In this document: positions 1,795-60,685 of the stretch, in pieces | Position numbering within the stretch: the stretch's first letter is position 1 | How the letters are laid out: each line of letters begins with the position of its first letter | Source: Prevotella sp. | GTDB taxonomy: Bacteria > Bacteroidota > Bacteroidia > Bacteroidales > Bacteroidaceae | Reading direction: 5' to 3' | NCBI GenBank assembly: GCA_017469955.1 | Contig: JAFUFJ010000005.1 | Location: forward strand, 124,001-188,000 | Length of the DNA: 64,000 nt | The notes under the pieces: generated by a model | The model's input: the letters and a program-made list of their open reading frames with translations, nothing else | Database searches by the model: none | What the model was told of the DNA's origin: nothing | Translations under genes and position numbers: made by a program

Positions 1795-1950
1795 AAGTTA
1801 CGAATAAACGAGCGAAATACAAAATATTTTTTGCATTTCCGAGCGGGAGTAACTTCTGTAAAGTTACGAAAAGAAAAGCGAAATACAAAATATTTTTTGC
1901 ATTTCCGAGCGGGAGTAACTTATGCAAAGTTACGACCAAGCGGGCGAAAC
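1795..1950. repeat. 66-bp tandem repeat (3 x 22 bp) with promoter-like elements
   Basis: The motif AAGTTACG recurs at 1795, 1861 and 1927, exactly 66 bp apart, and the first two 66-bp copies are nearly identical. Each copy includes an inverted repeat (GTAACTT..AAGTTAC) and an AT-rich palindrome (GCAAAAT..ATTTTTTGC). Read on the minus strand, the first and third copies give TAACTTTG, the Bacteroidetes -7 element, pointing to the GH92 gene. A related array lies at 28156. The rest of 1612-2195 holds the 22-bp array at 2031 and nothing else I can recognise. Confidence 0.85.
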
Positions 1951-2030
1951 GCAAGACTTCAAGCCTACTTTCGTATGCCAACTTGCAGATTTTCCAACTT
2001 GTCAATTGGACGAACGGTGCCCCTTCACGG

Positions 2031-2118
2031 GGCAAAAGATGATGTCTTGGTCGGCAATAGATGATGTTTTGGTCGGCAATAGATGATGTTTTGGTCGGCA
2101 ATAGATGATCTATTACTT
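2031..2118. repeat. 22-bp repeat array, type 2, 4 units
   Basis: Four contiguous 22-bp units start at 2031, 2053, 2075 and 2097. Units 2 and 3 are identical. Each unit is a near palindrome of the form GCAAAAGAT or GCAATAGAT, one base, then ATGTTTTGG or ATCTATTAC. The array lies between the epimerase stop and the GH92 start. Confidence 0.9.
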
Positions 2119-2195
2119 GGAGAAACCTTTGCGAACAGCACTCTGTCCACAAGGCTTCTCCGTCTGCTTTCATAAAAAACCAACTAACTATACTA

Positions 2196-3383
2196 CTAAA
2201 AATCGCGTTCAATGATTTCGAGGCACATGCGTGTGTTATGATAAGGACATTTCCAAGGGCCGGCCTTGTCGTCTTCTCTGTTGACGGTTCCGTCGGGCAT
2301 AATGCTCCAATGCCACTCGCCATGCTCACTGTCTACCAGACGATCGAGGATGTATCGATAGCACGCCACGGCCCGCTGCCTGGCTATCTCGTCGCCGAAG
2401 TGCTGGTAATGGTTCAGTTCGCCGATGACACATTCGCACTGAACCCACCAATGCCGGGCCATGTCGGTCTCGCCAGTGCTGACATTCATTTCGTGGATCA
2501 TTGAGCCGTCAGGACATAATCCCTCTTCCGAAGCCAGCGCAATCTGCCTGACAATGGGCATTGTCTCTGCTGAGAGCTGCTCGTCTCCGAGCACTTCAAG
2601 CGCCTCAGTCAGCAGCCATGCAGCCTCGATGTCATGGCCATAGCTCTCCAGATTCCTGCGTCCTTTCCAGTCGTTCGTGAAGAAAAGATCGAGATGACGG
2701 GTCTGCTTGTTGAGCAAACGGTCCGTGAAGATTCTGATCAACATGCGCAACCGCTGCTCCAATCGCTCGTCCTTCCACACACGAAACAGATTGGTGTAGG
2801 GCTCAAGAACGTGCAGATGCGTGTTCATTGTCTTGGCAGCGTTCTCGTCTTTGTCAGACAGTCTCATGTCGCTCACAGGCATCCAATCACACGTCATAGC
2901 CTCTATGTATCCGGGATGGGCCTCGTCGAAGGCATGTTTCTCGATGTCTTCAAAGAGACGCTTGGCAACCTCAAGGGCCTCTTTGTCGCCAGTAGCCCTG
3001 TAGAGTTCGCTCATTCCATAGACAGCAAAGCCAATGGCATAGGTCTGTTTCTTCGTCTCCTTTGGGTTGCCCAGATAGTCTACCGACCAATACACCCCTC
3101 CGTTGACAGGGTCGATGAAATGACTTACGAAGTAATCTTTGGCCCGTACAGCAGCCTCTTTGTATGCTTCCTTGCCCAGCACCCTGTAGGCTGAGGCAAA
3201 CGACCATAAGATGCGCGCATTTAGCACGGCCCCTTTGTCGGCCTTTTCATACAATCTGTCTGAGCCATCTATACGCCCATAGAACCCGCCATTCCTTTGG
3301 TCGGTCATCCTCTCAAGCCAGAACTTCAGGATGTTTTCCTCTGCCAGAAGGCGCGCGGAAGTCTTCCATTCTGCCGTCGTCAT
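2196..3383 (-). CDS. Mannobiose/cellobiose 2-epimerase (AGE superfamily)
   Basis: A 395-residue cytosolic enzyme of the N-acylglucosamine 2-epimerase superfamily, (alpha/alpha)6 barrel. It should convert the reducing-end mannose of beta-1,4-mannobiose to glucose, giving mannosyl-glucose for the GH130 phosphorylase. Visible landmarks are NGGFYGRID near residue 31, NGGVYWSVD near 94, NTHLHVLE (His189, His191), SYGHDIEAAWLL (His250) and WKCPYHNTRMCLE (His382). The last two match the catalytic histidine pair of cellobiose 2-epimerases. The ATG overlaps the stop of the GPH symporter by 4 bp (ATGA), so the genes are translationally coupled. Epimerase, GPH carrier and GH130 together are the known Bacteroides fragilis-type mannobiose pathway. 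N-acetylglucosamine epimerase is the alternative but the context speaks against it. Confidence 0.93.
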   Translation of the reverse strand: MTTAEWKTSARLLAEENILKFWLERMTDQRNGGFYGRIDGSDRLYEKADKGAVLNARILWSFASAYRVLGKEAYKEAAVRAKDYFVSHFIDPVNGGVYWSVDYLGNPKETKKQTYAIGFAVYGMSELYRATGDKEALEVAKRLFEDIEKHAFDEAHPGYIEAMTCDWMPVSDMRLSDKDENAAKTMNTHLHVLEPYTNLFRVWKDERLEQRLRMLIRIFTDRLLNKQTRHLDLFFTNDWKGRRNLESYGHDIEAAWLLTEALEVLGDEQLSAETMPIVRQIALASEEGLCPDGSMIHEMNVSTGETDMARHWWVQCECVIGELNHYQHFGDEIARQRAVACYRYILDRLVDSEHGEWHWSIMPDGTVNREDDKAGPWKCPYHNTRMCLEIIERDF

Positions 3384-4777
3384 GCCCTTTGTATCTTCAG
3401 TTTTTCATTGATCTCTTCCATGCATCCTGTGGTAAGCGGATAGAAATGGCAGACAACGACGGCCAGTACAGCCACGGCTGCGGGAATGAACGACATCAGA
3501 TAGCGCAGGCACTGCAGGGCCATCTCGGGCTGCGCCACCAGCATTTGGGCTGCCATCTGCTCGTCATTACGTGGCGTATATCCACATGCGCTGAGCAGCC
3601 AGAGCACAGCTGCGCCCCCGATAGCTCCTCCAAATTTCTGAGCCATGCTTGAAGAAGAGAAGATAAGTCCCGTCGATGCCGTCTTGTATTTCAGCTCAGC
3701 ATAGTCTGACACGTCGGCATACATCGACCAGATGAGTGGCGACATGACGCCCGTAAGCATCGATATCAGCACTTGGAAGATCAGCATCAGCCAGAAACCC
3801 GTAGGAGAAACGGGAATGAAAAAGAACAAAACACTCAATATAGCCAGTCCGACGTTCACGCCAATGAAGGTCGACTTCTTGCCGAAGTGTTTGGCTAATG
3901 TGACAGTCAGGGCCACTCCTACCATGTTGCTCACCTCGCCTATCGACAAGAAAAGGCCTGCATAGAACAAAATACTCCATGACTTCAGCCTCAGCACGGC
4001 GTCAAAACCGATAATGTCGGCAAAGTAGTATGCCACTGTTGCACCGCGAACCGTGCAGAAAAGATTGAAGCATATCGCCGCACCTATCATCAACCACCAG
4101 GGACGATTGCTTAATAATGCCTTGAAATCTCCGCCTACTGACACTGTAGAGACTGTCTTCAGCCGTTCGCGAGTCAACGAGAAGCAGAGCAGGAACAGCA
4201 CGAAACAGCACGAGGCAACAACCATCATTGAATGTTGCCAGGCAGCAGTAGACGACTGACCTGCCTCCTTAAAGAGGCTGACAATGGGTTCCCATGCAGC
4301 TAAGGCGATGAAAGACCCACCATAGGCAAAGAACATTCTGAACGAGGAGAATACCGTTTTTTCCCGGGAGTCGTCGGTCATCACGCCGAGCATGGCGCCA
4401 TAAGGCACGTTGATTCCTGTGTAAACAGTCATCATAAGGATATAAGTCACGTAGGCCCATACGAGCTTTGCTCCGTATTCCCAGTCGGGAGTTGTGAAGA
4501 GAAGGATGCCTGCGATGGAGAAAAATGGGGCAACCCACAGCAGGTAAGGCCTGTATTTTCCCCAGCGAGTGTGGGTTCTGTCAGCGATAATTCCCATCAT
4601 TGGATCGGAAACTGCATCCCATACACGGGTCACAAGCACCAGCACTCCTGCGTCGACCAGTGAGAGTCCAAACACATTTGAGTAGAAGAAGGGCAGGTAG
4701 TAGCTGAACACTTTCCAGAACATTGACGACGACATATCGCCGAATCCGTAGCCGATTTTCTCATGAAGTCTTGCCAT
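3380..4777 (-). CDS. GPH-family sodium:oligosaccharide symporter, probably for mannobiose
   Basis: A 465-residue inner-membrane carrier of the glycoside-pentoside-hexuronide family (MelB-like) with about twelve hydrophobic helices and no signal peptide. The N-terminal GYGFGDMSSSMFWK block and RVWDAVSDPMMG (Asp54, Asp58) followed by RTRWGKYRPYL-like DRTHTRWGKYRPYLL are diagnostic; the two Asp residues line up with the cation-binding Asp55 and Asp59 of MelB. It overlaps the epimerase by 4 bp and lies 30 bp after the GH130 gene, so all three form one operon. The inferred substrate is the mannobiose or short mannan oligosaccharide released in the periplasm. Substrate choice is inferred only from the neighbours. 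Confidence 0.92.
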   Translation of the reverse strand: MARLHEKIGYGFGDMSSSMFWKVFSYYLPFFYSNVFGLSLVDAGVLVLVTRVWDAVSDPMMGIIADRTHTRWGKYRPYLLWVAPFFSIAGILLFTTPDWEYGAKLVWAYVTYILMMTVYTGINVPYGAMLGVMTDDSREKTVFSSFRMFFAYGGSFIALAAWEPIVSLFKEAGQSSTAAWQHSMMVVASCCFVLFLLCFSLTRERLKTVSTVSVGGDFKALLSNRPWWLMIGAAICFNLFCTVRGATVAYYFADIIGFDAVLRLKSWSILFYAGLFLSIGEVSNMVGVALTVTLAKHFGKKSTFIGVNVGLAILSVLFFFIPVSPTGFWLMLIFQVLISMLTGVMSPLIWSMYADVSDYAELKYKTASTGLIFSSSSMAQKFGGAIGGAAVLWLLSACGYTPRNDEQMAAQMLVAQPEMALQCLRYLMSFIPAAVAVLAVVVCHFYPLTTGCMEEINEKLKIQRA

Positions 4778-4807
4778 ATATGTCTTGTTTTTGATTGTCT
4801 GTCTTGT

Positions 4808-5992
4808 TTATTGTCTGCCGTTTTCGACGGCTTTGTTCTTGGCTATCAGCCTTTTTACTGTTTCTACTGACGAAGCGGTGGTAAGTTTGTCTTCAGGAGT
4901 GTTGAGACAATAGTCGATGAGTCGGTCGACAGATGACACAGCTACATGCAGGCGTGTGTCGGACGAGGCATAGTATATCAGTACACGTCCGTCGTCATCC
5001 TTGATCCAACCGTTGGCAAAAACCACGTTCATTACATCGCCAACATACTCATCACCATCGGGTGCAATGAAGTATCCTCCTGGCTGAGCTATGAGGCGAG
5101 TGGGGTCGTCGAGGGCGGTCATGTACATATATAATACGTATCTCAGGCCGGAAGCCGTGCTGCGTACGCCATGAGCCAGGTGGAGCCATCCCTTTGAAGT
5201 CTTCAGCGGATGGGGGCCTTCACCGTTTTTCACCTCCATGATGGTGTGATAGTGCCGGGGGTTGATGATCTTCTCTTCTTCGACTTCGGCATGTGTAATG
5301 TCCTCGACGAGGGTCCAGCCGATGCCTCCTCCCGATCCTGTCTCTATGAAACCATCCTGCGGACGGGTATAGAAGGCGTATTTTCCCTTGACGAATTCGG
5401 GGTGCAGCACTACGTTTCGCTGCTGGCATCCCGACTTCAAGTCGTGCAGACGTTCCCATGTCTTCAGGTCTTTTGTACGTGCTATTGCCGCAGAAGCCAT
5501 AGCAGCCGAGAGGTCATTCGGATGGAGTTCGTCGTGGCGTTCTGCGCAAAACACGCCGTAGATCCATCCGTCCTCGTGCTGTGTGAGCCTCATGTCGTAG
5601 ACGTTGGTTGTGGGTATCAGGGTGTCAGGCATAGTGACGGGCTCGTCCCAGAAGCGGAATCCATTGATGCCGTCGGGGCTTTCTGCCACGGCAAAGAAGG
5701 ACTTCCTGTCGGAACCTTCGACCCTGCACACCAGCAAGTAGCGCCCGTCAATCTTAATGGCGCCCGCATTCAGCACGGCATTCATCATGATACGCTGCAT
5801 GAGATAGGGGTTGTCGGCCTCTGAAAAGTCGTAGCGCCACTCCAGAGGGGTGTGCTCGGCGGTCAATATCGGATATTTATATCGTTCGTAGATGCCGTTG
5901 CCATAGGGCAGGGGCATGTTCTGCCTGCTGAGCAACGCTTCGTGGCGTCGGCGCAGATCGGCTATTTTCTGTTCGTAGGTCATCTTTTCCAT
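4808..5992 (-). CDS. GH130 beta-1,4-mannosylglucose phosphorylase
   Basis: A 394-residue cytosolic phosphorylase with the five-bladed propeller sequence pattern of GH130 subfamily 1. It should split beta-mannosyl-1,4-glucose with phosphate into mannose 1-phosphate and glucose. Landmarks: [19 protein letters not shown] at the N-terminus, [32 protein letters not shown], and [13 protein letters not shown] with Asp133 equivalent to the catalytic Asp131 of the B. fragilis enzyme. No signal peptide. It is the first gene of the GH130-GPH-epimerase operon and has the promoter and regulator site at 6010-6066. A mannooligosaccharide phosphorylase (subfamily 2) is less likely given the adjacent epimerase. 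Confidence 0.93.
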
Positions 5993-6009
5993 TCTGTTGA
6001 TTTTAGCTG

Positions 6010-6066
6010 CAAAATTACAAGAAGCCTTGCGACTGTGTTGACACTATCTTGCCCATCACCGACACT
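6010..6066 (-). promoter_or_regulatory. Promoter and AraC-type direct-repeat operator of the GH130 operon
   Basis: On the minus strand TAATTTTG (6017-6010) fits the Bacteroidetes -7 element. Exactly 22 bp upstream a direct repeat begins: TGACACT-type half-sites starting with G at 6040 and G at 6061, 21 bp apart on the plus strand. The same layout occurs at 11050 and 20060. A two-turn spacing of direct repeats touching the -33 region is what AraC-family activators recognise. The regulator encoded at 20160-21044 is the obvious candidate; that link is inferred. Confidence 0.8.
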
Positions 6067-6238
6067 TGTTTATCATCCGTGCAATTGACCGAGGGCGGAG
6101 GAAGGTTATGAAGATGTAATTTTTTTTGCTCGTTTTTAACATTTCAGCACGCAAGTTGCAGCCGTTTTTTCCAAGAAAAACGACCATTCAAGCGGAAGAA
6201 AATGCTCGTTTCGGGTCACTGTGGCATGGCTTGCCGGC

Positions 6239-6370
6239 GAGAAAGCTATCCTTTCTGCCCTGCAAACGTCAACTGTCACGGTGTGAACCCATGGGGTTCT
6301 CAACGAAAAAGGTGCCCCTTCTCACCAAGAAAGGCCACCTTTCCGGGTTGCAATCTCGGGCTGTGCGAGG
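6239..6370. repeat. 22-bp repeat array, type 1, about 6 units, partly degenerate
   Basis: Units start at 6239, 6261, 6283, 6305, 6327 and 6349. The first (GAAAGCT then TCCTTTC) is canonical; the third (GAACCCA/TGGGGTTC) and fifth (GAAAGGC/CACCTTTC) are clear; the second and sixth are recognisable only by phase. It sits in the 557-bp gap between GH130 and the second GH26. Besides the promoter at 6010 I see nothing else in this gap. Confidence 0.75.
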
Positions 6371-6549
6371 CAGACACCTCTGCCCCGACGCCCTCTTTTA
6401 CAACAACACTATCATTTTCAGCAAGTTAAGAAAAGAGTTATTTTTTCTTTGTTTTCTGTGCCTACGTCAGCCTTTCCGCACAGGAAACGGCTTTCCGAAA
6501 GTCACATGTACAAATATTTCCAAGAATTTAACACTTCGTCGACGGCCGT

Positions 6550-7671
6550 CTACTGGGCTATGTCGTGCAGGAAGAGCGTGTTGCCTGCCTTGTAGAGCTC
6601 ATTGAAGTAAAGGGCATTCTTCTCGCCTGGCGCCGGCCCGAAGTACTCGTGTCTGGCGTTTCTCCATACAAGGAAGTAAGAAATGGGATACTTGTCGATC
6701 TGCGGTTTTAAGACTCGCGTCCACCAAGTAGGGTCTGGCAGGTTCTTCAGGCCGCACTCTGTCAAGGCAAACAGTTTCTCTTTCTTCTCGGCATAGCGCG
6801 AGATGAGGGTCAGGTCGGCATTGATCTGCCTGACAAAGTCTTGCTCCGTTCCCCATTGATAGGCATCAAGGCCCAGCAGATCAACCCTTTCGTCGCCCGG
6901 ATATCGCGACAGCAGATAGGCTTCTTCACGCCCTTTGGCCGACAGACTGTCTCCCGCAGTCGGCACGACATACGAGGCAGCCTCGTCGCAAATGCCAAGG
7001 TTGGGGCTCCAGCTCCACACGATATTGTCGAACCCCTCATTGAGAAGATAGTCTTGAAGCATGCACCACAGGGCCTTATACTGCTGGGGAGAGCACTGCT
7101 TCGAGCCCCACCAGAACCAGCCTCCGTTGTGTTCGTGCCACGGACGGAATATCAAAGGCACCGGACGATCGTTAGCCGTCTTGAGCGTGCGTAGGAAGTT
7201 TCTCACGTTCTTCATCCAGAGAAGAAACTTGCGATGCTGCGTTCCGCCGGGCAAAATGCTCTCGACAACGGTCGAGTCTGACGAGTCCCATGCCGTACCA
7301 CCGGTAAGAGGATTGCGCGGATGCCATGACAAAGTGACGATGCCGCCTCGCTCGACATGGGCAAGAAGTTCCTCGCGAATGCGGGTGAAAGGCACCGAGT
7401 CAAGGTTTTTCTCGTCGCCCATCTCAATACCACCAAGGTCAAAACCCATCACGGCAGGATAGTCTCCACAGGTTTCCTTGACATCACTCCGCCCAAGATC
7501 CCACTGCCAAGTGAGCCCATAAAAGGGGTCGTCCTGGTGGCCAAACATATAGCCTCTGGCCAGCAAGTCCTGCAGACGGTCAAGCAACTGCTGGCGCATC
7601 TGCGCCTGAACACTCAGGGGCAGCCACGAAAAGGCTGCCAAAAGACTACAGAAAAATATCTTCTTCATCAT
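6550..7671 (-). CDS. GH26 beta-mannanase (periplasmic, secreted)
   Basis: A 373-residue family 26 beta-mannanase with a type I signal peptide (MMKKIFFCS..., predicted cut after VQA near residue 23) and no lipobox, so it is probably periplasmic. Motifs: GYMFGHQDDPFYG near 40, the RPWHEHNGGWFWWG block with acid/base Glu180, and LFALTECGLKN with nucleophile Glu305. It follows GH36 by 44 bp without its own clear promoter, so the two are likely cotranscribed. A periplasmic GH26 next to an epimerase and a GH130 suggests release of mannobiose from imported mannooligosaccharides, as for the B. fragilis Man26 enzyme. Its sequence is clearly different from the lipoprotein GH26 at 18890, so the two are not a recent duplication. 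Confidence 0.95.
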   Translation of the reverse strand: MMKKIFFCSLLAAFSWLPLSVQAQMRQQLLDRLQDLLARGYMFGHQDDPFYGLTWQWDLGRSDVKETCGDYPAVMGFDLGGIEMGDEKNLDSVPFTRIREELLAHVERGGIVTLSWHPRNPLTGGTAWDSSDSTVVESILPGGTQHRKFLLWMKNVRNFLRTLKTANDRPVPLIFRPWHEHNGGWFWWGSKQCSPQQYKALWCMLQDYLLNEGFDNIVWSWSPNLGICDEAASYVVPTAGDSLSAKGREEAYLLSRYPGDERVDLLGLDAYQWGTEQDFVRQINADLTLISRYAEKKEKLFALTECGLKNLPDPTWWTRVLKPQIDKYPISYFLVWRNARHEYFGPAPGEKNALYFNELYKAGNTLFLHDIAQ

Positions 7672-7715
7672 CGGTTGATTGGTTTATCGGCGCGACGAGG
7701 CGCGCCTTCGGATTA

Positions 7716-9947: not shown

Positions 9948-9975
9948 ATGATATATACTGTTTGCAATTTGGCTG

Positions 9976-10033: not shown

Positions 10034-10108
10034 TCCGTCACGACATCAAGAAAATGGCCATCAGCATCACCATGCTGACGGCCGTCAAGAATTTTTCTAA
10101 AAAGCAAC

Positions 10109-18880: not shown

Positions 18881-18889
18881 CCAGAAGCC

Positions 18890-51814: not shown

Positions 51815-53907
51815 ACATCCTCTCGCAAGACATAAAGTACCTGACAGGCGTCGGACCGGCACGCAAAGAGCTGCTCAAACGGGAGCTCGGCATCGAGACT
51901 TGGGGCGACCTGCTGGAGTATTTCCCCTACAAATATGTCGACCGCAGCCGTGTCTATGCCATAGATGAGCTACGGGGCGAGATGCCTTTCGTACAGGTGA
52001 AAGGCCGCATTCTCAGCTTTGAAGAGTTTGCCATGGGCCCAAGGAAGAAGCGAATAGTGGCCCATTTCAGCGACGGACACGGCGTAGTCGACCTGGTTTG
52101 GTTCAACGCAGCAAAGTACATCTACCAGCAATATAAGACTGACACCGAATACATCGTCTTCGGAAAACCCACCGTCTACGGCGGAAGATACCAGTTCTCA
52201 CACCCTGACATCGACCGTCCCGACGAGTTGAAGCTATCGGAAATGGGCCTGCAACCCTACTACATCACCACCGAAACGATGAAGAAACGCGGGCTCAACT
52301 CTCGTGCCGTCGAGCGCATCATGAAGACCCTTCTCGAGAAGATTGCCACCCCCCTCGACGAGACACTGCCCCCCTTCATCACGGGTCCGCTCCACCTTGT
52401 CTCGCGCAACGACGCCCTTCATTGGATACATTACCCGAGGAATGCCGAGGAGATGAGCCGTGCACGACTGCGGCTTAAGTTTGAAGAACTGTTCTATGTG
52501 CAGCTGAACATCGTGCGCTATGCAAGCGACCATCGGCGTAAATACAGAGGAAACATCTTCTCGCACGTCGGCAAGACATTCAACGATTTCTACTATCAAA
52601 GCCTGCCTTTCCCGCTCACTGGCGCCCAGAAACGGGTGATACGCGAGATACGAACCGACTGCGGATCGGGCAGACAGATGAACCGTCTGCTGCAGGGCGA
52701 CGTGGGAAGCGGCAAGACGCTCGTAGCCTTGATGTCGATGCTCATCGCCATTGACAACGGCTATCAGGCATGTATCATGGCGCCAACCGAGATACTTGCC
52801 GAGCAGCATCTGCAGACAATCCGCGAGTTTCTGGGGCCGATGCCGGTCAGAGTCGAACTGCTTACGGGCATCGTAAAGGGCAAACGCCGCGAAGAAGTGT
52901 TGCAGGGCATCATCGACGGAAGCATCCAGATACTCGTCGGAACACACGCCTTGATAGAAGAAACGGTGCAGTTCCAGCGGCTCGGGCTGGCCGTTGTCGA
53001 CGAGCAACACCGCTTCGGCGTGGCTCAACGCGCAAAGCTATGGGCGAAAAACGACAACCCTCCGCACGTGCTTGTCATGACTGCCACGCCTATTCCGCGA
53101 ACACTCGCCATGACCATCTACGGCGATCTCGACGTAAGCATTATCGACGAACTGCCGCCAGGACGCAAACCCGTACAGACCATCCATAAATATGACAACG
53201 AGACCACTTCCCTCTATCAAGGCATTCGGCAGCAGGTCAACCAGGGAAGGCAGGTCTATATCGTCTTCCCCCTTATACAAGAAAGCGAGAAAATCGACCT
53301 GAAAAACCTCGAAGAGGGGTTTGAAGCCTTGAAAGAAGTGTTCCCCGAATTCAGGCTAAGCAAGGTTCACGGCAAGATGAAACCTGCAGAAAAAGAGGCA
53401 GAGATGCAACGCTTCGTCAACAGGGAGACGCAGATTCTCGTCGCAACAACGGTGATCGAAGTGGGAGTAAACGTGCCCAACGCCTCGGTAATGGTCATCC
53501 TCGACGCCCAGCGCTTCGGCCTTTCACAGCTGCATCAGCTGCGCGGACGCGTGGGAAGGGGCGCCGACCAGTCGTATTGCATACTCGTTACCAGGCGCGA
53601 ACTCGCAAAAGAAACCCGCACACGCATCGACATCATGTGCCAGACCAACGACGGATTTGAGATTGCAGAGGCCGACCTGAAGCTCAGAGGTCCCGGCGAT
53701 CTCGAGGGAACTCAGCAGAGTGGCGTGGCATTTGACTTGAAAATCGCCGACATTGCACGCGACGGACAAATCGTGCAAATGGCACGCAACGAGGCTCAGA
53801 AAATCATCGATGCCGACCCCAACTGCGAGAAAACCGAATACCAAATGCTCTGGAACCGCCTGAAAGAACTGCGAAAAACCAACGTCAACTGGGCTGCCAT
53901 CAGCTGA
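51811..53907 (+). CDS. recG: ATP-dependent DNA helicase RecG
   Basis: A 698-residue RecG, which remodels stalled forks and branched DNA. N-terminal wedge domain ([37 protein letters not shown] fold to about residue 160), then superfamily 2 helicase motifs: [16 protein letters not shown] (Walker A), [36 protein letters not shown] (DEQH box), [13 protein letters not shown], and motif [19 protein letters not shown]. The C-terminal [18 protein letters not shown] is diagnostic. Coupled to ispD. Confidence 0.98.
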
Positions 53908-54014
53908 CAACTCCCGCAATCCACAGTCCGAGACAGCAGCCTCAATACCAACGTTCCGCCCCTTCAATACCGTCAACCGTGCCCACTTATAGGCAGAACG
54001 ACGGAAAAAGCCAG

Positions 54015-54102
54015 CGCAAAACATCATCTTTTGCCGACCAATACATCATCTTTTGCAGGGGAAAACATCATCTTTTGCCCAACGAATGCTATCGTTTCTC
54101 AG
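54015..54102. repeat. 22-bp repeat array, type 2 with a type 1 unit at the end
   Basis: Units start at 54015, 54037, 54059 and 54081. The first three are type 2 (GCAAAACAT/CATCTTTTGC and variants). The fourth (GAATGCT/TCGTTTC) is clearly a type 1 unit directly in phase (within one base). This is the junction that links the two vocabularies. The remainder of the 378-bp gap holds the M23 promoter. Confidence 0.88.
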
Positions 54103-54222
54103 CCGTCAACCTGTGTTTCAACACCGGAAAAGGACAAGAAAAAGAGGAATATACAGCCGCCACGAGAAACGAAAAATACATAAAATCTGTTAACAGGACA
54201 AGGTTTTCCGCACATATTTTCG

Positions 54223-54230
54223 TATCTTTG
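54223..54230 (+). promoter_or_regulatory. Promoter -7 element of the M23/LysM gene
   Basis: TATCTTTG in TTCGTATCTTTGCAAC, 55 bp before the ATG at 54286. Confidence 0.7.
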
Positions 54231-54285
54231 CAACGCATTATGCCCGTTTGGGCACTATTTCTAACCTATCTTGAAAGGAAAAAAC

Positions 54286-55248
54286 ATGAACATTGGCAAT
54301 CATGTAAAAGCATTCATCATAACCGTCGCAACCGCACTTGCCGGCCAGTCGGCACAGGCTCAAGACCTGCTTGCACGCCAAGCGCCCATCGACAGGAAGG
54401 CAAGAATCGTTGACACTCTGATGCTTCAACGCATTATTGAGGAAGAAATGGAGGCGTCAATCGCTGCCGACCTCTATGCAAACTGGAACAATACGGGGGT
54501 ACACAACCGCAATGCTCTGCTGCCCGAACAATACAAAATAGACCTGCGAGACTTCACGATGCCGACGCCAAGCCGCGTCATTACGAGCAACTATGGACCG
54601 CGATGGGGACGTCGGCACGAAGGACTTGACATCAAAGTCTATACGGGCGACACCATCAGATCGGCCTTCAGCGGGCGGGTTCGCATCGTGAAATTCGACC
54701 GGAAAGGATATGGAAACTACGTAGTTGTGCGCCATCCGAACGGATTGGAGACGGTCTATGGACACCTCTCCCGCCAGCTTGTAAGGGAAGGACAAGACCT
54801 GAAGTCGGGCGACGTGATAGGACTTGGCGGAAGCACTGGGCGCAGTTCTGGGTCGCACCTGCACTTTGAAACCCTCCTGAATGGTATCCCAATAAACCCT
54901 GCTTTGCTGTTTGACTTCCGCATGCAGGACGTCACTGGCGACTTCTATACATACAATCGTGCCACATATGCCGACGAAGACCGCGAGGCAACCCGCCTGC
55001 GTGGCAAGATGGGAAATGGCGGTTATACTCCTGAAATGGTGCGGGGCGATGCCGCTCCTGCCTTCAATCCTGCCAAGGAAACGGCACGGTCAAGCAGCAG
55101 TGTGAAGAAGTATCACAAGGTGAAGAAAGGCGAGACTCTGTCGTCAATCGCACGGAAACGCCACACAACCGTCGACCGTTTATGCCGGCTTAACGGCATA
55201 AAGAAGAGCGCAAAGCTGCGCCCGAACCAGATACTCCGCTACAGTTGA
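54286..55248 (+). CDS. Exported M23 metallopeptidase with C-terminal LysM
   Basis: 320 residues from ATG at 54286, preceded by AAAGGA at a good distance. Signal peptide cut near AQAQ. The M23 (LytM-like) domain spans about 95-220: SNYGPRWGRRHEGLDIKV with His and Asp zinc ligands, YGNYVVVRHPNGLETVYGHLS, and GRSSGSHLHFETLLNG with the His-x-His motif. The C-terminal LysM (about 275-320, YHKVKKGETLSSIARKRHTTVDRLC) should bind peptidoglycan. Either an endopeptidase that cuts cross-links or an activator of amidases; the complete zinc site favours an active enzyme. Confidence 0.94.
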   Translation: MNIGNHVKAFIITVATALAGQSAQAQDLLARQAPIDRKARIVDTLMLQRIIEEEMEASIAADLYANWNNTGVHNRNALLPEQYKIDLRDFTMPTPSRVITSNYGPRWGRRHEGLDIKVYTGDTIRSAFSGRVRIVKFDRKGYGNYVVVRHPNGLETVYGHLSRQLVREGQDLKSGDVIGLGGSTGRSSGSHLHFETLLNGIPINPALLFDFRMQDVTGDFYTYNRATYADEDREATRLRGKMGNGGYTPEMVRGDAAPAFNPAKETARSSSSVKKYHKVKKGETLSSIARKRHTTVDRLCRLNGIKKSAKLRPNQILRYS

Positions 55249-55360
55249 TCGCGGAAACGGACAAGACAACCGTGCAAAAACCTGACTCCACTCTTACTAT
55301 TATATATAAGGTGTGAGGCATTTACAACTTATTAAAAACTTTTCTCTAATACAAAACAAA

Positions 55361-55405
55361 AGGACATCTGCAGGGAATTACTTCTGCAGATGTCCTCATT
55401 TTATG
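55361..55405. terminator. Bidirectional terminator between the M23 and GT genes
   Basis: Perfect 13-bp stem AGGACATCTGCAG (55361-55373) with 55384-55396 and a 10-nt loop. On the minus strand TTTTGTTTTG follows, on the plus strand CATTTTAT. It separates two convergent genes. Confidence 0.8.
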
Positions 55406-55444
55406 CCTGCGGCACCGCTCTTGTCCTCTTTTACCGACAGCCTT

Positions 55445-56230
55445 TCAGCGACGAAAACGACTGACGACGGTCCTGAAAAGGAACCATACGTGCATGAAGA
55501 GCGTAGGCAGCAGGCCATAATGGACACGCATCACGCGAAACCTCTCTCGCAGAGATGCCCGATGGTTGGCCGTAGTCAGTCCGCCTTCCAGATAGTTTAC
55601 GACCGTCATGTTCAGGTTACGCAGCGGGAGTTGCAGGCTGTCGGCAGCCTTCATCACCCTGATACACCAGTCGACATCTGCCGAAAACCGGTAGCGAAGG
55701 TCGTATGGACAAGCCTTGGCAAGGTCGGTTCGCGCATAGAACGCCTGATGGCATACCGTCATTCCATGCAGGAAAGAGCGCCAGGAAAGGTGCCGTGGCG
55801 GGCGTAAACGCCGAGGATAGAGCACCCGACCCGCAAGGTCTGTGATGTCGGTATCTCCATAAAGCACACCGGGAAGAGTCTCGTCCTCACCCACTGCACC
55901 GTCAATCAACTCCAGCGTGTCGGCCGAAGGCAGCGCGTCGCCGGCATTGAGAAAGACCACATAGCTGCCCGAAGCCATCTGCAACCCTTTGTTCATCGCG
56001 TCGTAAAGGCCATGGTCCGGCTCTGAGATCACTATCACATCGTGGGCATTATCCGAAGCGTCGCTCTCCTGCTTATAGGCCATTGCCATCTGCAAAGTGG
56101 CGTCTTCCGACCGACCGTCGACGATGATATGTTCCACCTGATGGTGTGTTTGACGAAGTAAACTGTCGAGGGTTCTCTGCAGCACAGGTGCCGCATTATA
56201 GGTGCAAGTGATAACCGAAAAACGAATCAT
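55445..56230 (-). CDS. GT2-family glycosyltransferase
   Basis: A 261-residue soluble GT-A glycosyltransferase: FSVITCTYNAAPVLQRTLDSLLRQTH at the N-terminus, HIIVDGRSEDAT, ISEPDHGLYDAMNKGLQMASG, VVFLNAGDALPS (metal-binding region) and ADVDWCIRVMKAAD. It probably adds a sugar to a surface polysaccharide. It is the second gene of a two-gene operon with the GT4 transferase (4-bp overlap). Confidence 0.92.
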   Translation of the reverse strand: MIRFSVITCTYNAAPVLQRTLDSLLRQTHHQVEHIIVDGRSEDATLQMAMAYKQESDASDNAHDVIVISEPDHGLYDAMNKGLQMASGSYVVFLNAGDALPSADTLELIDGAVGEDETLPGVLYGDTDITDLAGRVLYPRRLRPPRHLSWRSFLHGMTVCHQAFYARTDLAKACPYDLRYRFSADVDWCIRVMKAADSLQLPLRNLNMTVVNYLEGGLTTANHRASLRERFRVMRVHYGLLPTLFMHVWFLFRTVVSRFRR

Positions 56231-57498
56231 AGCTTGAGATGTTTCATTGTAAGGATCTCATGATATACCTCATAGTACCGGGATGCGACCGAGGTCTGTG
56301 AATAGTTCTGGGCGACTTTCCTTACCGAAGCCTTCGAGAGTTCGTCCCCGTCAGCCTGAAGAGTCCACCAGATGCCGTCCTTCAAATCGTCGGTATTGCG
56401 ATAGGATGCTACATATCCTGTCTGACAATGGTCGATCATCTCTGGTATTCCCCCTACCTTGAAGCCCACGCAAGGCACTCCACATGCCATGGCTTCCATA
56501 ATGGTGTTGGGAAGATTCTCGGAAAGTGACGGCAAGACAAACACGTCGGCAGCATTATAAATGTCGACCAAGGTCTGCACATCAGCTACATATCCCATGC
56601 TGAAGACCGGCATTTGCAGGTCTTCACCGATAGATTCGGCATGCCGGCCCATGGACAAAATGCCCAATTTCCCATTCTGTTCAGGGTGTTCATCCATCAG
56701 CTTGTTGCAGGCGTTTTGCAGGAATTCAACTCCTTTATTGGCATTGTTTACGCGCTGAGCAGCAAAGAGTATGAGCTGCATGTCTTGAGGGAGATTCAGG
56801 CGAATCCGCGCCTCTCTCTTGCTCTTCGGGCAGAAGACATGAGTGTCAATAGGGTTTGGAATAGCCTTGACCGACTGCCCTTCCAGCAACAAACTGCCCC
56901 GTGCTTCACCAGCAAGCCACTTGCTGCAAGCCACAAAAGCCACATGTTGTCCTTTCAACATATTGGTCTTTTTGCGCCAAGTGCGAACGGCAAGGTCGTT
57001 GTCGCTACCGTTTCCCGGCAAGTACTTGCAGTGACGGCAACCACTTTTAAAACGGGCGCACCCCAAAGTCAGATGACAAATGGCCGTGGCAGGCCACATA
57101 TCGTGCATCGTCCACACTACAGGCTTGCCGCTGCGGAGTATCTTTCTGATGCTGCCCAGCGACAACATTCCCTGATTAATCCAGTGAAGATGTATCACAT
57201 CAGCTTCCTTGAACTCAGGCAACCGGGTGATATCCGTACCAGAATTGGCTATGTCGACATGGAAAAGATGAGTCCTTGAGAAGTGCAAATGAAAGAAAAT
57301 CGTCCAGCGTTCCCACAGGAAATGCCAACGAGAGAGCCATTTTCTGCCCAATTCCACAACGGTAATACTGTCGGTCTCCTTGTCACTGACCAGCATTTTC
57401 GCCTTCACTCCGTTGTTGTTCAGTGCTTCTACCAGCCGATAAGCAGCCACCGCAGCTCCGCCTTTCCGTTCCGAAGTATTCACTATTAATACTCGCAT
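56227..57498 (-). CDS. GT4-family glycosyltransferase
   Basis: A 423-residue GT-B glycosyltransferase. N-terminal domain: VLIVNTSERKGGAAVAAYRLVEAL and VIHLHWINQGMLSL, with a Cys/His-rich insert (AICHLTLGCARFKSGCRHCKYLPG) that is frequent in Bacteroidetes capsule and LPS enzymes. C-terminal domain: LILFAAQRVNNANKGVEFL and VFVLPSLSENLPNTIMEAMACGVPCVGFKVGGIPEMI with the E-x7-E motif. The -7 element TAATTTTG lies at 57559-57552 (minus). Linked by a 4-bp overlap to the GT2 gene. Confidence 0.93.
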   Translation of the reverse strand: MRVLIVNTSERKGGAAVAAYRLVEALNNNGVKAKMLVSDKETDSITVVELGRKWLSRWHFLWERWTIFFHLHFSRTHLFHVDIANSGTDITRLPEFKEADVIHLHWINQGMLSLGSIRKILRSGKPVVWTMHDMWPATAICHLTLGCARFKSGCRHCKYLPGNGSDNDLAVRTWRKKTNMLKGQHVAFVACSKWLAGEARGSLLLEGQSVKAIPNPIDTHVFCPKSKREARIRLNLPQDMQLILFAAQRVNNANKGVEFLQNACNKLMDEHPEQNGKLGILSMGRHAESIGEDLQMPVFSMGYVADVQTLVDIYNAADVFVLPSLSENLPNTIMEAMACGVPCVGFKVGGIPEMIDHCQTGYVASYRNTDDLKDGIWWTLQADGDELSKASVRKVAQNYSQTSVASRYYEVYHEILTMKHLKL

Positions 57499-57551
57499 AT
57501 ACCGATATTCCTTTCCCTTTCCTGCGACAAGTCTGTCATTTCATTGAGCTA

Positions 57552-57559
57552 CAAAATTA
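57552..57559 (-). promoter_or_regulatory. Promoter -7 element of the GT4-GT2 operon
   Basis: TAATTTTG on the minus strand, 53 bp before the ATG at 57498. Confidence 0.6.
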
Positions 57560-57844
57560 CAAATTAATTGCCTTTTCAAAGAAAAATCAGCGTAAAAAGA
57601 TGCCTTTTCCATGTAGAAATGTGAGCAGCCTTTGTAATAAAAAGGAAGAAAGATACCTTTTTGGTTTGATATATATCAAGAGAAAGACATCAAAAGAAAA
57701 TAATTTGTAATATTGTTTGCGCGCACACAAAACAATTACTACCTTTGCATCAACAAAAGTTAATAGATTGTTTAGGTTAGTAGTAATAGATTTAGGTTTT
57801 TAGTTATTAGGTTTAAGGTAAAAGTTAGTGATTGTTTAACCAGG

Positions 57845-57889
57845 ATGACAATGGAGGCCGTGAGGTTCCCATTTGTTTTTAGAAAATAA
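57845..57889 (+). CDS. Possible 14-residue leader peptide within the small RNA
   Basis: ATG ACA ATG to TAA encodes MTMEAVRFPFVFRK. A short AGG lies just before the ATG and the intrinsic terminator follows 23 bp after the stop. Such an arrangement resembles attenuator leaders, but no codon bias toward one amino acid stands out except three Phe. Only a candidate. Confidence 0.3.
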   Translation: MTMEAVRFPFVFRK

Positions 57890-57912
57890 GTTTTCAAGTT
57901 AAACATAACAGG

Positions 57913-57952
57913 ATACACCGCTGCTCGCTGATGAGTGGCGGTGTATTTTTTT
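57913..57952 (+). terminator. Intrinsic terminator of the small RNA
   Basis: Stem ATACACCGC (57913-57921) with GCGGTGTAT (57938-57946), 16-nt loop with a small inner CTC/GAG pairing, followed by seven T. Confidence 0.92.
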
Positions 57953-58118
57953 GATGCCTTTTCTGCGTAAGAGCCAAGAGCGTCCACCTTATTGTATACA
58001 TTGCAACCCTATAGAGTCCAGACATGGCCTTCTTGTTGTTTTTCCTGTCCTATCATAAAAAATGCGGCTAAAAGGAAAGAAAACGATTTTTTTTGCATTC
58101 ATTTCGTTGCTTTTTTCG

Positions 58119-58126
58119 TAACTTTG
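58119..58126 (+). promoter_or_regulatory. Promoter -7 element of the carboxyltransferase gene
   Basis: TAACTTTG in TTCGTAACTTTGCACG, 56 bp before the ATG at 58183. Confidence 0.72.
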
Positions 58127-58182
58127 CACGCTCAGGGGCCCGTGTGCAATTATCATTCCCGCCCCGAAAGGACATAGTAAAT

Positions 58183-59961
58183 ATGAAGAAAGCGATACAG
58201 TTTAGTCTTGTTTACCGAGACATGTGGCAGAGCTCGGGTAAGTTTCAGCCACGCAAAGACCAGTTGGAGCGCATAGCTCCAGTAATTATCGAGATGGGAT
58301 GTTTCAGTCGTGTTGAGACAAACGGCGGTGCTTTCGAGCAGGTTTGCCTGCTTGCCGGCGAGAATCCCAACGAGGCAGTTCGCGCTTTTTGCAAACCTTT
58401 CAATGAAGTAGGCATCAAGACCCACATGCTGGACCGCGGTCTGAATGCCCTTCGTATGTATCCCGTTCCCGACGATGTCCGTGCCTTGATGTACAAGGTC
58501 AAGCATGCTCAAGGCGTAGACATCCCACGTATCTTCGACGGTTTGAACGATGTCCGCAACATCATTCCTTCTATCAAGTGGGCCAAAGAGGCAGGCATGA
58601 CGCCCCAGGGAACGCTTTGTATCACCACTTCTCCCGTACACACCTTGGACTATTACATGAGCATTGCCGACCAGCTGATTGAGGCAGGTGCCGAAGAAAT
58701 ATGCCTGAAAGACATGGCAGGCATCGGCCAACCAGCCTTTCTTGGCAAGCTGACCAGGATGATCAAGACGAAGTATCCTGACATACTCATCCAGTATCAT
58801 GGCCATTCAGGGCCAGGACTCTCGATGGCATCCATCCTCGAAGTGTGCGAGAATGGTGCAGACATCATCGACACTGCCATCGAGCCTTTATCATGGGGTA
58901 AGGTACATCCGGACATCATTTCCGTGCAGTCGATGCTCAAGAACGAGGGCTTTGATGTGCCTGAAGTCAATATGTCGGCCTACATGAAGGCTCGCTCTCT
59001 CACTCAAGAATTCATAGATGAATGGCTTGGATATTTTATCAATCCTGGCAATAAACACATGTCAAGTCTGCTGCTTGGATGTGGCCTTCCCGGGGGCATG
59101 ATGGGCTCGATGATGGCCGATTTAGGTGGCATTCAAGGGACTATTAACAACATCCGCAAGAAGAAAGATCTCGAGCCTTTGTCGACAGACGACATGCTTG
59201 TGGCGCTCTTCAACGAGGTAGAATACGTGTGGCCCCGCGTGGGTTATCCGCCATTGGTGACGCCTTTCTCCCAGTATGTGAAGAACATTGCCCTGATGAA
59301 CCTTCTGACTATGGAGCAGGGCAAGGGCCGTTTCGTGATGATGGACGAGGCCATGTGGGGCATGATTCTCGGCAAGAGCGGAAAAGTTCCCGGCGAGTTG
59401 GCTCCCGAGATTGTGGAACTTGCCCAGAAGCAAGGGCGCGAGTTTACCGATGCCGACCCACATACGCTGCTGCCAAATGCCCTTGACGACTTCCGCAAGG
59501 AGATGGATGAAAACGGTTGGGACTATGGAAAGGACGACGAAGAACTCTGGGAACTGGGCATGCATCCTGAGCAATACCGCAATTACAAGAGCGGACAGGC
59601 CAAGAAAAACTTCCTTTCCGACCTGCAGAAAGCTAAGGATGCTGCCCTTGGAACGACCCTTTCGCCGGCCGAGCTGGCTGCGTTCAAACATGCCAAAGCC
59701 GATGCCATCGTCGCACCAGTCAAGGGACAAGTCATCTGGGAGTTTGGTGCTGACGGCGAAGCTGAGCCAACAGTCGAGCCCTATATCGGCAAGGAATACG
59801 CCGAGGGCGACCTGCTTTGCCACATACAAGCACCGTGGAATGAGTTCGTCGAAGTGAAGGCTGCTCTCGGAGGAAAGCTTGTAGAGATCAACGCCAAGCG
59901 CGGAGACAAGGTGCAGAAGGGCGACGTGATTGCCTACATTGAAAGACCTTCGGCCGAATGA
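58183..59961 (+). CDS. Oxaloacetate decarboxylase alpha / pyruvate carboxylase B-like carboxyltransferase with altered biotinyl domain
   Basis: 592 residues from ATG at 58183. TIM-barrel carboxyltransferase with metal ligands Asp13 (SLVYRDMWQSS, in place of the usual TLRDxHQS), carbamylated-Lys candidate Lys176 (CLKDMAG) and YHGHSGPG (His206, His208), then the PYC-OADA conserved domain (about 300-470) with VGYPPLVTPFSQYVKNIALMN. The C-terminal barrel-sandwich (about 512-590) looks like a biotinyl/lipoyl domain, but where biotin carriers have AMKM it reads QAPWNEFVE: the biotinylated lysine is absent. It must therefore use another biotin carrier or do something else. The HD gene overlaps its stop by 4 bp. 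Confidence 0.88.
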   Translation: MKKAIQFSLVYRDMWQSSGKFQPRKDQLERIAPVIIEMGCFSRVETNGGAFEQVCLLAGENPNEAVRAFCKPFNEVGIKTHMLDRGLNALRMYPVPDDVRALMYKVKHAQGVDIPRIFDGLNDVRNIIPSIKWAKEAGMTPQGTLCITTSPVHTLDYYMSIADQLIEAGAEEICLKDMAGIGQPAFLGKLTRMIKTKYPDILIQYHGHSGPGLSMASILEVCENGADIIDTAIEPLSWGKVHPDIISVQSMLKNEGFDVPEVNMSAYMKARSLTQEFIDEWLGYFINPGNKHMSSLLLGCGLPGGMMGSMMADLGGIQGTINNIRKKKDLEPLSTDDMLVALFNEVEYVWPRVGYPPLVTPFSQYVKNIALMNLLTMEQGKGRFVMMDEAMWGMILGKSGKVPGELAPEIVELAQKQGREFTDADPHTLLPNALDDFRKEMDENGWDYGKDDEELWELGMHPEQYRNYKSGQAKKNFLSDLQKAKDAALGTTLSPAELAAFKHAKADAIVAPVKGQVIWEFGADGEAEPTVEPYIGKEYAEGDLLCHIQAPWNEFVEVKAALGGKLVEINAKRGDKVQKGDVIAYIERPSAE

Positions 59962-60542
59962 TCGACTACGTTTCCGTCATCAAGCGCTACTACAAGGAGG
60001 ATACGCCCCTATGGGATATCCTCCTTCATCATAGCCGTCAAGTGGCCGGAAGGGCGCTGTCCATATGCGACCGTCATCCCGAATGGCAGCTTGACCGGCA
60101 GTTCATCGAGGCCGCATCCATGCTCCACGACATCGGCATCACGCGCTGCGATGCGCCGGGAATCGCGTGTTTCGGCACCGAACCCTACATCCGTCACGGG
60201 CTGTTGGGTGGCGAAATGCTCCGACAACTGCCCCTCGAGCCGGCCATCACCGAGCCCTTTGCGCGCATTTGCGAGCGACATACGGGAGCAGGAATCACCA
60301 CCGACGAGATTCGCCTTCAGCACCTTCCCCTGCCTGAACGCGACCTGCAGCCCGAGACTTTAGCCGAGCAACTGGTGTGCTATGCCGACAAGTTCTATTC
60401 AAAATCGCACCTCGAACGCGAGAAAACCATCGACGAAGCGGCCCGCAGCCTTCGCAAGTTCGGCGAAGAAGGCGTAGTGCGGTTTCTCAGGTGGGCAGCC
60501 CTCTTCGAAGACTATCAGGCACCTTCCGGGGCTCAGCAGTGA
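59958..60542 (+). CDS. HD-domain hydrolase
   Basis: A 194-residue soluble HD protein. Metal-binding residues in order: HHSRQVAGRAL (His24 or 25), SMLHDIGITRCDAPG (His57-Asp58), IRHGLLGGEML (His80) and ICERHTGAG (His108). Similar single-domain HD proteins hydrolyse phosphate monoesters or nucleotides. The ATG lies within the last codon of the carboxyltransferase gene (ATGA), so translation is coupled. No metabolic link between the two is known to me. Confidence 0.88.
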   Translation: MIDYVSVIKRYYKEDTPLWDILLHHSRQVAGRALSICDRHPEWQLDRQFIEAASMLHDIGITRCDAPGIACFGTEPYIRHGLLGGEMLRQLPLEPAITEPFARICERHTGAGITTDEIRLQHLPLPERDLQPETLAEQLVCYADKFYSKSHLEREKTIDEAARSLRKFGEEGVVRFLRWAALFEDYQAPSGAQQ

Positions 60543-60575
60543 GCCTTCACGGCGACCATGCTGCGACCTGCCGGC

Positions 60576-60685
60576 GAGAAAGCTAAGAGTTCATCCCGAG
60601 AAGTCATAGCTTTCTGGCCCATAAACCTATCCTTTCTCACCCTGAACCCATAGACTTCTCACCCTGAATCCTTAGCTTTCTCGGC
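60576..60685. repeat. 22-bp repeat array, type 1, 5 units
   Basis: Units start at 60576, 60598, 60620, 60642 and 60664 with pairs GAAAGCT/AGAGTTC, GAAGTCA/AGCTTTC, TAAACCT/TCCTTTC, GAACCCA/AGACTTC and GAATCCT/AGCTTTC. It lies between the convergent HD and trpB2 genes, just before a strong terminator. Confidence 0.92.

What the first reader, a model, noticed from the sequence alone, without database searches (positions are those of the whole stretch)
1795..60685. A 22-bp quantised, modular intergenic repeat system
Fifteen intergenic sites in 64 kb carry tandem arrays whose unit length is exactly 22 bp: 2031, 6239, 18815, 21303, 25088, 28547, 32934, 35116, 42615, 46630, 50905, 54015 and 60576, plus the 66/88-bp repeats at 1795 and 28156. 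Within an array the phase is kept even where units have diverged, so insertions or deletions seem not to be tolerated. Each unit is an imperfect palindrome with purine-A bases at positions 4-7 and TTT near 14-16. Sites are between convergent, codirectional and divergent genes and inside operons, so they are not simply terminators. About two helical turns per unit would place all units on one face of DNA. Possible roles are a binding scaffold for a dimeric nucleoid or regulatory protein, a chain of RNA hairpins, or a self-spreading element. I know of no named repeat class that fits.
Basis: seen in the sequence. Interest (0 to 1): 0.88.

Follow-up and report, generated by a model that had tools for sequence, protein, structure and literature searches.

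The report
Five-unit 22-bp arrays on DNA lattice
A Prevotella-type bacterium carries over a hundred copies of a fixed five-block DNA pattern, in step with a faint 11-letter rhythm running through its genes, which suggests an unknown protein that coats its chromosome in a regular lattice.

Summary
Lag-22 repeats form 13 clusters in the window, none in 10 shuffles. The main family is a dyad-symmetric 107-bp element of five 22-bp units: 44 of 48 arrays have exactly five (most were fetched with a five-unit query, in the window alone 6 of 9). A profile search gave 130 distinct places with only 150 of 1641 candidates scored. The host is a Prevotellaceae MAG. Of 95 other loci, 32 hold 22-bp arrays, with other letters and 0 of 39 inside called genes. 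Prevotella histicola: 19 of 21 have five units.

The arrays sit in phase with an 11.02-bp AA/TT wave coherent past 2 kb, written mostly in synonymous codon choice. It is strong in three genomes, weaker in several, absent in most sampled relatives and in an E. coli stretch.

RNA roles are disfavoured. Best explanation: binding and nucleation arrays for an unidentified dimeric protein that oligomerises on DNA. Protein, function and spreading are inferred. Against a simple version, array density does not track the wave, and neighbouring arrays are not register-locked. The 66/88-bp repeats are another family.

The parts
2031..2109 (.). class B 22-bp array, 3.6 copies (GGCAATAGATGATGTTTTGGTC)
   Evidence: TRF 96% match, 0% indels
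6239..6348 (.). degenerate class A array, three units above threshold at 6283-6348
   Evidence: not found by TRF
18815..18883 (.). class B array, three units
   Evidence: TRF gives 2% indels
21303..21368 (.). class B array, three units, not found by TRF
   Evidence: in phase with flanks
25088..25197 (.). degenerate five-unit array of class A type
   Evidence: unit scores 8 to 26; not found by TRF
28547..28653 (+). class A element, 107 bp, five units
   Evidence: profile match
32934..33040 (+). class A element, five units
35116..35222 (-). class A element, five units, with a weak sixth unit to 35247
42615..42721 (+). class A element, five units, at the centre of a 16-bp flanking inverted repeat
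   Evidence: not found by TRF
46630..46758 (.). class A element with six units; its end overlaps the gene called at 46747-47430
50905..51011 (+). class A element, five units
   Evidence: not among the 150 scored rows
54015..54079 (.). class B array, three units
60576..60682 (+). class A element, five units
1791..1935 (.). 66-bp tandem repeat of another family, not a 22-bp unit array
28156..28407 (.). 88-bp tandem repeat related to the 66-bp family, not a 22-bp unit array
1..64000 (.). 11.02-bp AA/TT wave through coding and intergenic DNA, locally phase-coherent over kilobases

Best explanation
Each class A array is a double-stranded DNA binding site of fixed stoichiometry: five dyad-symmetric 22-bp sites, i.e. 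ten 11-bp half-sites in alternating orientation, all on one face of DNA with an 11-bp turn. It would be occupied by an unidentified dimeric nucleoid-type protein whose dimers pack side by side. In lineages such as this one the same protein, or the chromosome state it fixes, continues outside the arrays in the same 11-bp register through genes and gaps, so that synonymous codon choice has come to place AA/TT at the same helical position for kilobases. The arrays would be the high-affinity nucleation or anchoring points. Shown: arrays, their five-unit architecture, recurrence of 22-bp arrays with other letters in other Prevotellaceae, the kilobase-coherent wave, its synonymous encoding and the in-phase position of arrays. 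Inferred: a protein, its dimerisation and oligomerisation, nucleation, and a nucleoid role.
For: 44 of 48 arrays have exactly five units (39 of the 48 come from stretches fetched because they matched a five-unit query or lay beside such a match; in the window alone 6 of 9). The same rule with unrelated letters holds in P. histicola, 19 of 21 (also fetched with a five-unit query). In 95 other loci, 22 bp is the commonest array lag (39 arrays in 32 loci), against 0-3 at lags 19, 20, 23, 25, 26 and 29; 0 of these 39 lie inside called genes although 82% of that DNA is called coding. Element orientation and gene context are neutral (12 vs 11, counted; p 0.67), as expected of a DNA-level site. AA/TT autocorrelation in 264 kb has period 11.02 bp and amplitude 0.0196 at 30-110 bp, still 0.0060 at 1650-2190 bp where the highest background is 0.0005. 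Synonymous shuffling (one shuffle) cuts the coding amplitude from 0.0170 to 0.0018. Coherence across gaps of 60 bp or more is no lower than within genes. 46 of 46 arrays are within a quarter turn of the phase of their 120-600 bp flanks (R 0.93; random sites 89%, R 0.65). P. histicola arrays are phase-locked past 1.4 kb. Local wave amplitude is 0.018-0.025 within 3 kb of an array and 0.013 beyond 4.5 kb.
Against: No binding protein was found. HU-family genes occur in 30 of 30 genomes searched, own included, wave or no wave; the archaeal-type histone fold is in 0 of 24. Array density does not track the wave: G016, with a strong wave, has 4 arrays in 140 kb, G010 has a weak wave and 0 arrays in 40 kb, while G001, G007 and G011 have 5-8 arrays per 100 kb and little or no wave; 10 of 18 same-genus genomes showed no array in the 10-40 kb sampled. 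In pooled non-wave loci (29 usable arrays) flanks are in phase at 25-110 bp (z 4.6) and 110-220 bp (z 2.2), not at 220-440 (z 0.4), with an isolated z 2.7 at 440-880; in 8 arrays of G016 and weak-wave genomes the lock ends near 440 bp. Distances between arrays show no register in any bin, with only 6 pairs under 3 kb. The long-range wave has an 11-bp period but no 22-bp AA-versus-TT alternation, so flanks are not simply diluted arrays. At four segments orthologous with P. histicola the phase differs by 0.6, -1.9, 2.0 and -5.5 bp. The fall of amplitude with distance may reflect gene content. Most of the in-phase result follows from the wave itself, since random sites reach 89%.
Confidence: 0.5

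Rival explanations
1. The arrays act as RNA: chains of hairpins, terminators or mRNA stabilisers.
For: 92 of 92 strands of 46 elements fold better than shuffles (all z below -2, mean -6.6); a few global pairs covary, e.g. unit 1 position 18 with unit 5 position 2, 32 Watson-Crick vs 24.8 expected.
Against: On the sense strand of 23 codirectional arrays G.T is 37 and A.C 51, and wobble-type pairs over all 46 are 187 against 191.8 expected from columns. Element orientation is random to transcription (12 vs 11, counted). Arrays occur in divergent gaps at background rate. No Rfam match at gathering threshold in the window. Unit 3 halves never carry the same tetramer, 0 vs 11.6 expected, though this partly reflects element orientation.
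Confidence: 0.15
2. Passive mobile element (MITE- or REP-like) whose 22-bp units are transposase binding sites.
For: The closest pair is 93% identical with 100-bp flanks at 23-31%; the six best pairs have flanks at 23-33%. Identity stops at the 107-bp ends in the four pairs printed. In P. histicola conserved sequence extends into the flanks, as in a larger mobile element. 2 of 46 arrays lie at the exact centre of an inverted repeat.
Against: No convincing target-site duplication: the best score is 17 of 46 for 2 bp at a boundary inside the element. Copies 74% identical on average align without indels. The 22-bp architecture recurs with unrelated letters in other species. Copies sit in phase with the host wave, although random sites do so at 89%.
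Confidence: 0.2
3. Intrinsic DNA curvature code only: phased A-tracts that shape supercoiled loops, with arrays as extreme bends and no dedicated protein.
For: AA/TT peak opposite GC, CC, GG and CG, as expected of the known bacterial 11-bp signals (PMC4132750 and PMC3431218, abstracts and passages seen).
Against: Kilobase coherence, five-unit stoichiometry and conserved letters outside AA/TT go beyond bending. PMC1242344 (passages) puts the usual range at about 100 bp.
Confidence: 0.2
4. The wave is a mutational footprint of a regular coat, not selected.
For: Mostly in synonymous choice; similar amplitude in genes and gaps beyond 110 bp.
Against: Does not explain the near-invariant arrays. PMC7537859 (abstract, one section, passages) argues for selection on periodicity in general.
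Confidence: 0.15

Closest known systems
BrickBuilt MITE/minisatellite of Porphyromonas gingivalis (PMC4596501; abstract and sections 5 and 8 read, passages elsewhere)
   Same: Dispersed, intergenic, tandem short unit, same order Bacteroidales (recalled), predicted stem loops.
   Different: Unit is 23 nt; 1 to 22.8 copies; 0-6% indels; leader and tail; 19 copies in ATCC 33277. Here: 22 bp, mostly five units, no indels in aligned copies, at least 130 places, dyad-symmetric element.
11-bp A-tract periodicity or 'structural code' of bacterial genomes (PMC4132750, PMC3431218, PMC7537859: abstracts and passages, plus one section of the last; PMC1242344, PMC3940949: passages)
   Same: AA/TT about every 11 bp in coding and non-coding DNA, partly codon-encoded; some genomes show it along most of the chromosome (PMC3431218).
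   Different: Usual range about 100 bp (PMC1242344), though PMC7537859 reports E. coli periodicity to at least 1 kb. Here the same measure is about seven times E. coli at 30-110 bp and coherent past 2 kb, with fixed 22-bp arrays in phase.
REP/BIME palindromic repeats (recalled)
   Same: Dispersed intergenic palindromes.
   Different: No 22-bp five-unit register recalled; here letters differ by species while architecture stays.
Plasmid iterons and ParR/ParB centromere repeats (recalled)
   Same: Tandem protein sites at helical spacing.
   Different: Usually one or few loci per replicon; here over a hundred dispersed sites.

Membership tests
BrickBuilt MITE | 23-nt unit | tested here: not met
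   unit is 22 bp; lag 23 gives 0 clusters in the window
BrickBuilt MITE | variable copy number, 1 to 22.8 | tested here: not met
   44 of 48 have five units; 19 of 21 in P. histicola; sets mostly fetched with five-unit queries
BrickBuilt MITE | leader and tail around the array | tested here: inconclusive
   identity stops at the 107-bp ends in four close pairs of the own genome, but P. histicola has conserved flanks
Transposon-derived MITE | target-site duplication | tested here: not met
   no convincing shared TSD over the boundaries tried
Transposon-derived MITE | cognate transposase | not tested
   not searched
Rho-independent terminator / structured RNA | strand asymmetry (G.U over A.C on the sense strand; orientation with transcription) | tested here: not met
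   37 vs 51 in 23 codirectional arrays; 12 vs 11 (counted)
Known Rfam RNA | match at gathering threshold | tested here: not met
   0 matches in the window
Bacterial 11-bp DNA-structural periodicity | AA/TT period near 11 bp in coding and non-coding DNA, codon-encoded | tested here: met
Bacterial 11-bp DNA-structural periodicity | short range, about 100 bp (as PMC1242344 describes it) | tested here: not met
   coherent past 2 kb
Nucleoid protein nucleation array | bound by an identified oligomerising DNA-binding protein | not testable with these tools
   no protein-binding data
Nucleoid protein nucleation array | regularly phased, dyad-symmetric sites | tested here: met
Archaeal-type histone chromatin | histone-fold gene | tested here: not met
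   PF00808 in 0 of 24 genomes, own included; own genome 75.6% complete
REP/BIME | REP consensus and linked RAYT transposase | not tested
   no RAYT search made

The most novel reading that the evidence does not exclude
Some Prevotellaceae carry a bacterial chromatin with a sequence-fixed register: an oligomerising protein nucleates on five-dimer 22-bp arrays and coats the chromosome in a near-continuous 11-bp lattice, and this register is written for kilobases into synonymous codons. The arrays would be an architecture-defined class of element (fixed five-site geometry, species-specific letters).
Probability: 0.35. Interest if true: 0.95.

Novelty: categorically new. Interest (0 to 1): 0.85.

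Why it matters
As far as I know, no bacterial chromosome is described as keeping a fixed helical register over kilobases. A genome in which codon choice carries an 11.02-bp phase across genes and gaps, with fixed five-site arrays in step, would make the question of whether bacterial nucleoids have a regular, sequence-encoded fibre directly testable. P. histicola, a named isolate, has both signals, so a protein could be sought by ordinary pull-down. It would also add a constraint on codon usage and indels that present models of bacterial gene evolution ignore.

Tried and rejected
RNA hairpin chain: rejected as main reading for lack of strand asymmetry (the unoriented count, G.T 75 and A.C 112, says little because contig strand is not the transcribed strand). 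Global hairpin selection: Watson-Crick counts mostly equal expectation from column composition. Flanks as decayed 22-bp arrays: rejected for the long range, since AA-minus-TT has no 22-bp component; near arrays the 22-bp register does persist. Wave as protein-coding artefact (alpha helices, codon usage): rejected by the codon shuffles. Wave anchored on genes: start and stop codons show no phase preference (Rayleigh p 0.16 and 0.25) and intergenic lengths no mod-11 preference (p 0.75). Register locking between neighbouring arrays: not found (two window distances, 2182 and 4387 bp, lie near whole turns, the wider list does not). Lattice allowing only tandem repeats of period 11n: outside 22/44 too few arrays to tell. 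Histone fold: found in 0 of 24 genomes searched. HU expansion as cause: HU-family counts do not separate wave from non-wave genomes. blastn with the window array finds nothing in the 39 relatives besides the own genome, which led to the period-based search.

Limits and dropped rows: wave strength in most genomes rests on 10-40 kb; the wave versus non-wave grouping was by eye; gene calls come from my own ORF scorer, not a standard caller; one search scored 150 of 1641 candidates, so 130 is a lower bound (the clear array at 50905 is not among them). The 46 elements used after one search are its 48 less the three-unit 6283 array and the six-unit 46630 array; six-unit 35116 and L029 were cut to five. 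Alignment A1 also left out 25088. One search printed 36 of the 39 arrays. One search used only arrays with AA/TT amplitude over 0.08 and shorter than 230 bp. Each codon shuffle was run once. The script stopped with an error at its last save after printing its results; one search stored them.
Full report
What is there. The window (G000:C6:124001-188000, a 2.26-Mb draft genome in 22 contigs, 75.6% complete) is from a Prevotellaceae MAG, judging by its nearest named relatives: for a window protein that I take for an RluA-like enzyme (recalled, not tested), 80 loci were returned, mostly Prevotella or Prevotellaceae records with some Leyella, Segatella and kin, the best at 92% identity and the rest at 72-81%. 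Repeats at lag 22 form 13 clusters in 64 kb, with none in 10 dinucleotide shuffles and none at lags 21 or 23. Two families share the 22-bp unit: class A (GAGAA..TTCTC) and class B (GCAAWAGATNATCTWTTGC). The 66- and 88-bp repeats at 1791-1935 and 28156-28407 are other sequences.

Class A is a fixed element. In the window plus 40 fetched stretches, 48 arrays were found: 44 with five units, three with six, one with three. 38 of those stretches were fetched because they matched a five-unit query, so the window, read without such a choice, is the fairer sample: 6 of 9 have five, two six, one three. In 241 units AA stands at positions 4-5 and TT at 15-16 in 99%, so AA and TT alternate every 11 bp. 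Unit 1 resembles the reverse complement of unit 5 and unit 2 that of unit 4, so the 107 bp are dyad-symmetric. Positions 6-9 and 11-14 are drawn from a small set of words such as AGCT, AGGA, GTCT, CTCT, CCCA and ACCT. Unit 3 is asymmetric, which gives each element a direction; 23 of 46 point each way. A profile made from 45 copies gave 150 rows in the own genome, 130 distinct places, with 150 of 1641 candidates scored.

Place and strand. 0 of 46 array centres lie inside a called gene. Context is 23 codirectional, 13 convergent and 9 divergent (one lacks a neighbour), against 41, 16 and 17 for gaps of 150 bp or more (p 0.67). In codirectional gaps the element points with transcription in 12 and against it in 11 (counted). 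Folding is strong (92 of 92 strands below z -2), as palindromes must be, but on the sense strand of the 23 codirectional arrays G.T pairs number 37 and A.C 51, and over all 46 wobble-type pairs are 187 against 191.8 expected, so there is no sign of selection on an RNA strand.

Relatives. blastn with one array finds nothing in 39 relatives. Searching by period instead, 22 bp is the commonest array lag between 14 and 44 in 95 other loci: 39 arrays in 32 loci, against 0 to 3 at lags 19, 20, 23, 25, 26 and 29 (lag 21 gives 18, lag 44 gives 17, lag 14 gives 14). 0 of the 39 have their centre in a called gene, with 82% of that DNA called coding. Letters differ widely between species; a rumen MAG (L120) has five units in the order U1=U5, U2=U4. 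P. histicola JCM 15637 has 40 places of a TAAAAGGNGCCCTTTT element, the number scored out of 218 candidates; 19 of 21 analysed have exactly five units, two have six. The S. copri array has rows at five places only. In 18 same-genus genomes sampled over 10-264 kb, 8 show at least one array.

The wave. Scoring the unit profile beside arrays, the array register remained the best of 22 phases far into neighbouring genes. This led to the AA/TT autocorrelation: over 264 kb of the own genome the period is 11.02 bp, with amplitude 0.0196 at 30-110 bp, 0.0119 at 660-1100 and 0.0060 at 1650-2190, where the highest background is 0.0005. G016 (a single-contig genome of the same genus) and P. histicola behave alike, with periods 11.02 and about 10.98; Prevotella sp. 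DNF00663 shows it at about half strength. E. coli K-12 (50 kb) gives 0.0029 at 30-110 bp and nothing beyond its highest background at longer range. Of 18 same-genus genomes sampled including the own, only the own and G016 are strong; G017, G010, G006 and G003 are weak. Signals at lags above 3 kb in the window are compatible with a few long domains and are not claimed as order over tens of kilobases.

It is DNA-level. With proteins and each gene's codon set fixed, shuffling synonymous codons once drops the coding amplitude at 30-118 bp from 0.0170 to 0.0018 in the own genome, 0.0158 to 0.0030 in G016 (40 kb) and 0.0209 to 0.0016 in P. histicola (21 kb). Coherence over gaps of 60 bp or more is at least that within genes; phase ignores start and stop codons. 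AA/TT peak where GC, CC, GG and CG are lowest.

Arrays and wave. 46 of 46 arrays are within a quarter turn of their 120-600 bp flanks (R 0.93), as are 20 of 20 in P. histicola (R 0.90); random sites reach 89% and 86%, so the wave itself explains much of this. Coherence across an array equals that beside it, so arrays do not break the wave. Amplitude falls from 0.018-0.025 within 3 kb of an array to 0.013 beyond 4.5 kb. Against a simple nucleation model: array-to-array distances show no register in any bin; array density does not track the wave, since G016 has 4 arrays in 140 kb and G001, G007 and G011 have arrays with little or no wave; in non-wave loci flanks are in phase to 100-200 bp, with an isolated z 2.7 at 440-880 bp; and one of four orthologous segments is in antiphase in P. 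histicola.

Dispersal. Mean identity among copies is 74%, maximum 93%; the six best pairs have flanks at 23-33% and identity ends at the element's ends in the four pairs printed, without a convincing target-site duplication. Two of 46 arrays lie at the centre of an inverted repeat of 37 and 16 bp. The element is therefore probably copied to new places by some route, yet keeps length and phase.

Mechanism. I favour a protein array: five dimers side by side, 22 bp each, one DNA face, in a state with 11-bp turns. The wave would be the trace of the same register over the chromosome. The protein is unknown; HU-family genes occur in 30 of 30 genomes and do not track the wave, and the archaeal histone fold is in 0 of 24.

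Known systems. BrickBuilt (PMC4596501, abstract and sections 5 and 8 read) has a 23-nt unit, 1 to 22.8 copies, indels, leader and tail. Bacterial 11-bp periodicity is well described, and in some genomes covers most of the chromosome (PMC3431218, abstract and passages), but as a bias within about 100 bp (PMC1242344, passages); PMC7537859 (abstract, one section and passages read) reports E. coli periodicity to at least 1 kb and explores half-lives of 5 to 60 bp. Ten searches of an open-access library listed no report of 22-bp arrays in Prevotella; most subscription journals are not held. I rate the arrays categorically new because no repeat family tested is met on its defining features; the wave alone would be a new variant of a known kind.

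Noticed in passing
window 1791-1935 and 28156-28407: 66- and 88-bp tandem repeats of one AAGTTACG..GTAACTT family, with lengths that are multiples of 22 though the sequence is unrelated to the arrays.
   Followed up: partly
L028:1962-2142: The array sits at the exact centre of a 37-bp perfect inverted repeat, as if inserted into a palindrome.
   Followed up: partly
L191-L210 (P. histicola): Flanks of the five-unit array carry further conserved sequence (TTGTAAC..GTTACAA), so the dispersed element looks larger than the array there.
   Followed up: partly
L164:4256-4366 and 20558-20666: Two further 22-bp arrays with other letters (4.5 and 3.0 copies by TRF, about five by eye) lie within 21 kb of P. 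histicola, so one genome carries several letter classes.
   Followed up: no
L124:8951-9060: An array of 11-bp direct repeats (AGTCATATGTA, then AGATATGAGTT).
   Followed up: no
L110:1830-2052 and 3602-3802: Long tandem repeats with periods 72 and about 57 bp in the relative with the highest protein identity, in whose 11.8 kb the array scan found no 22-bp array.
   Followed up: no
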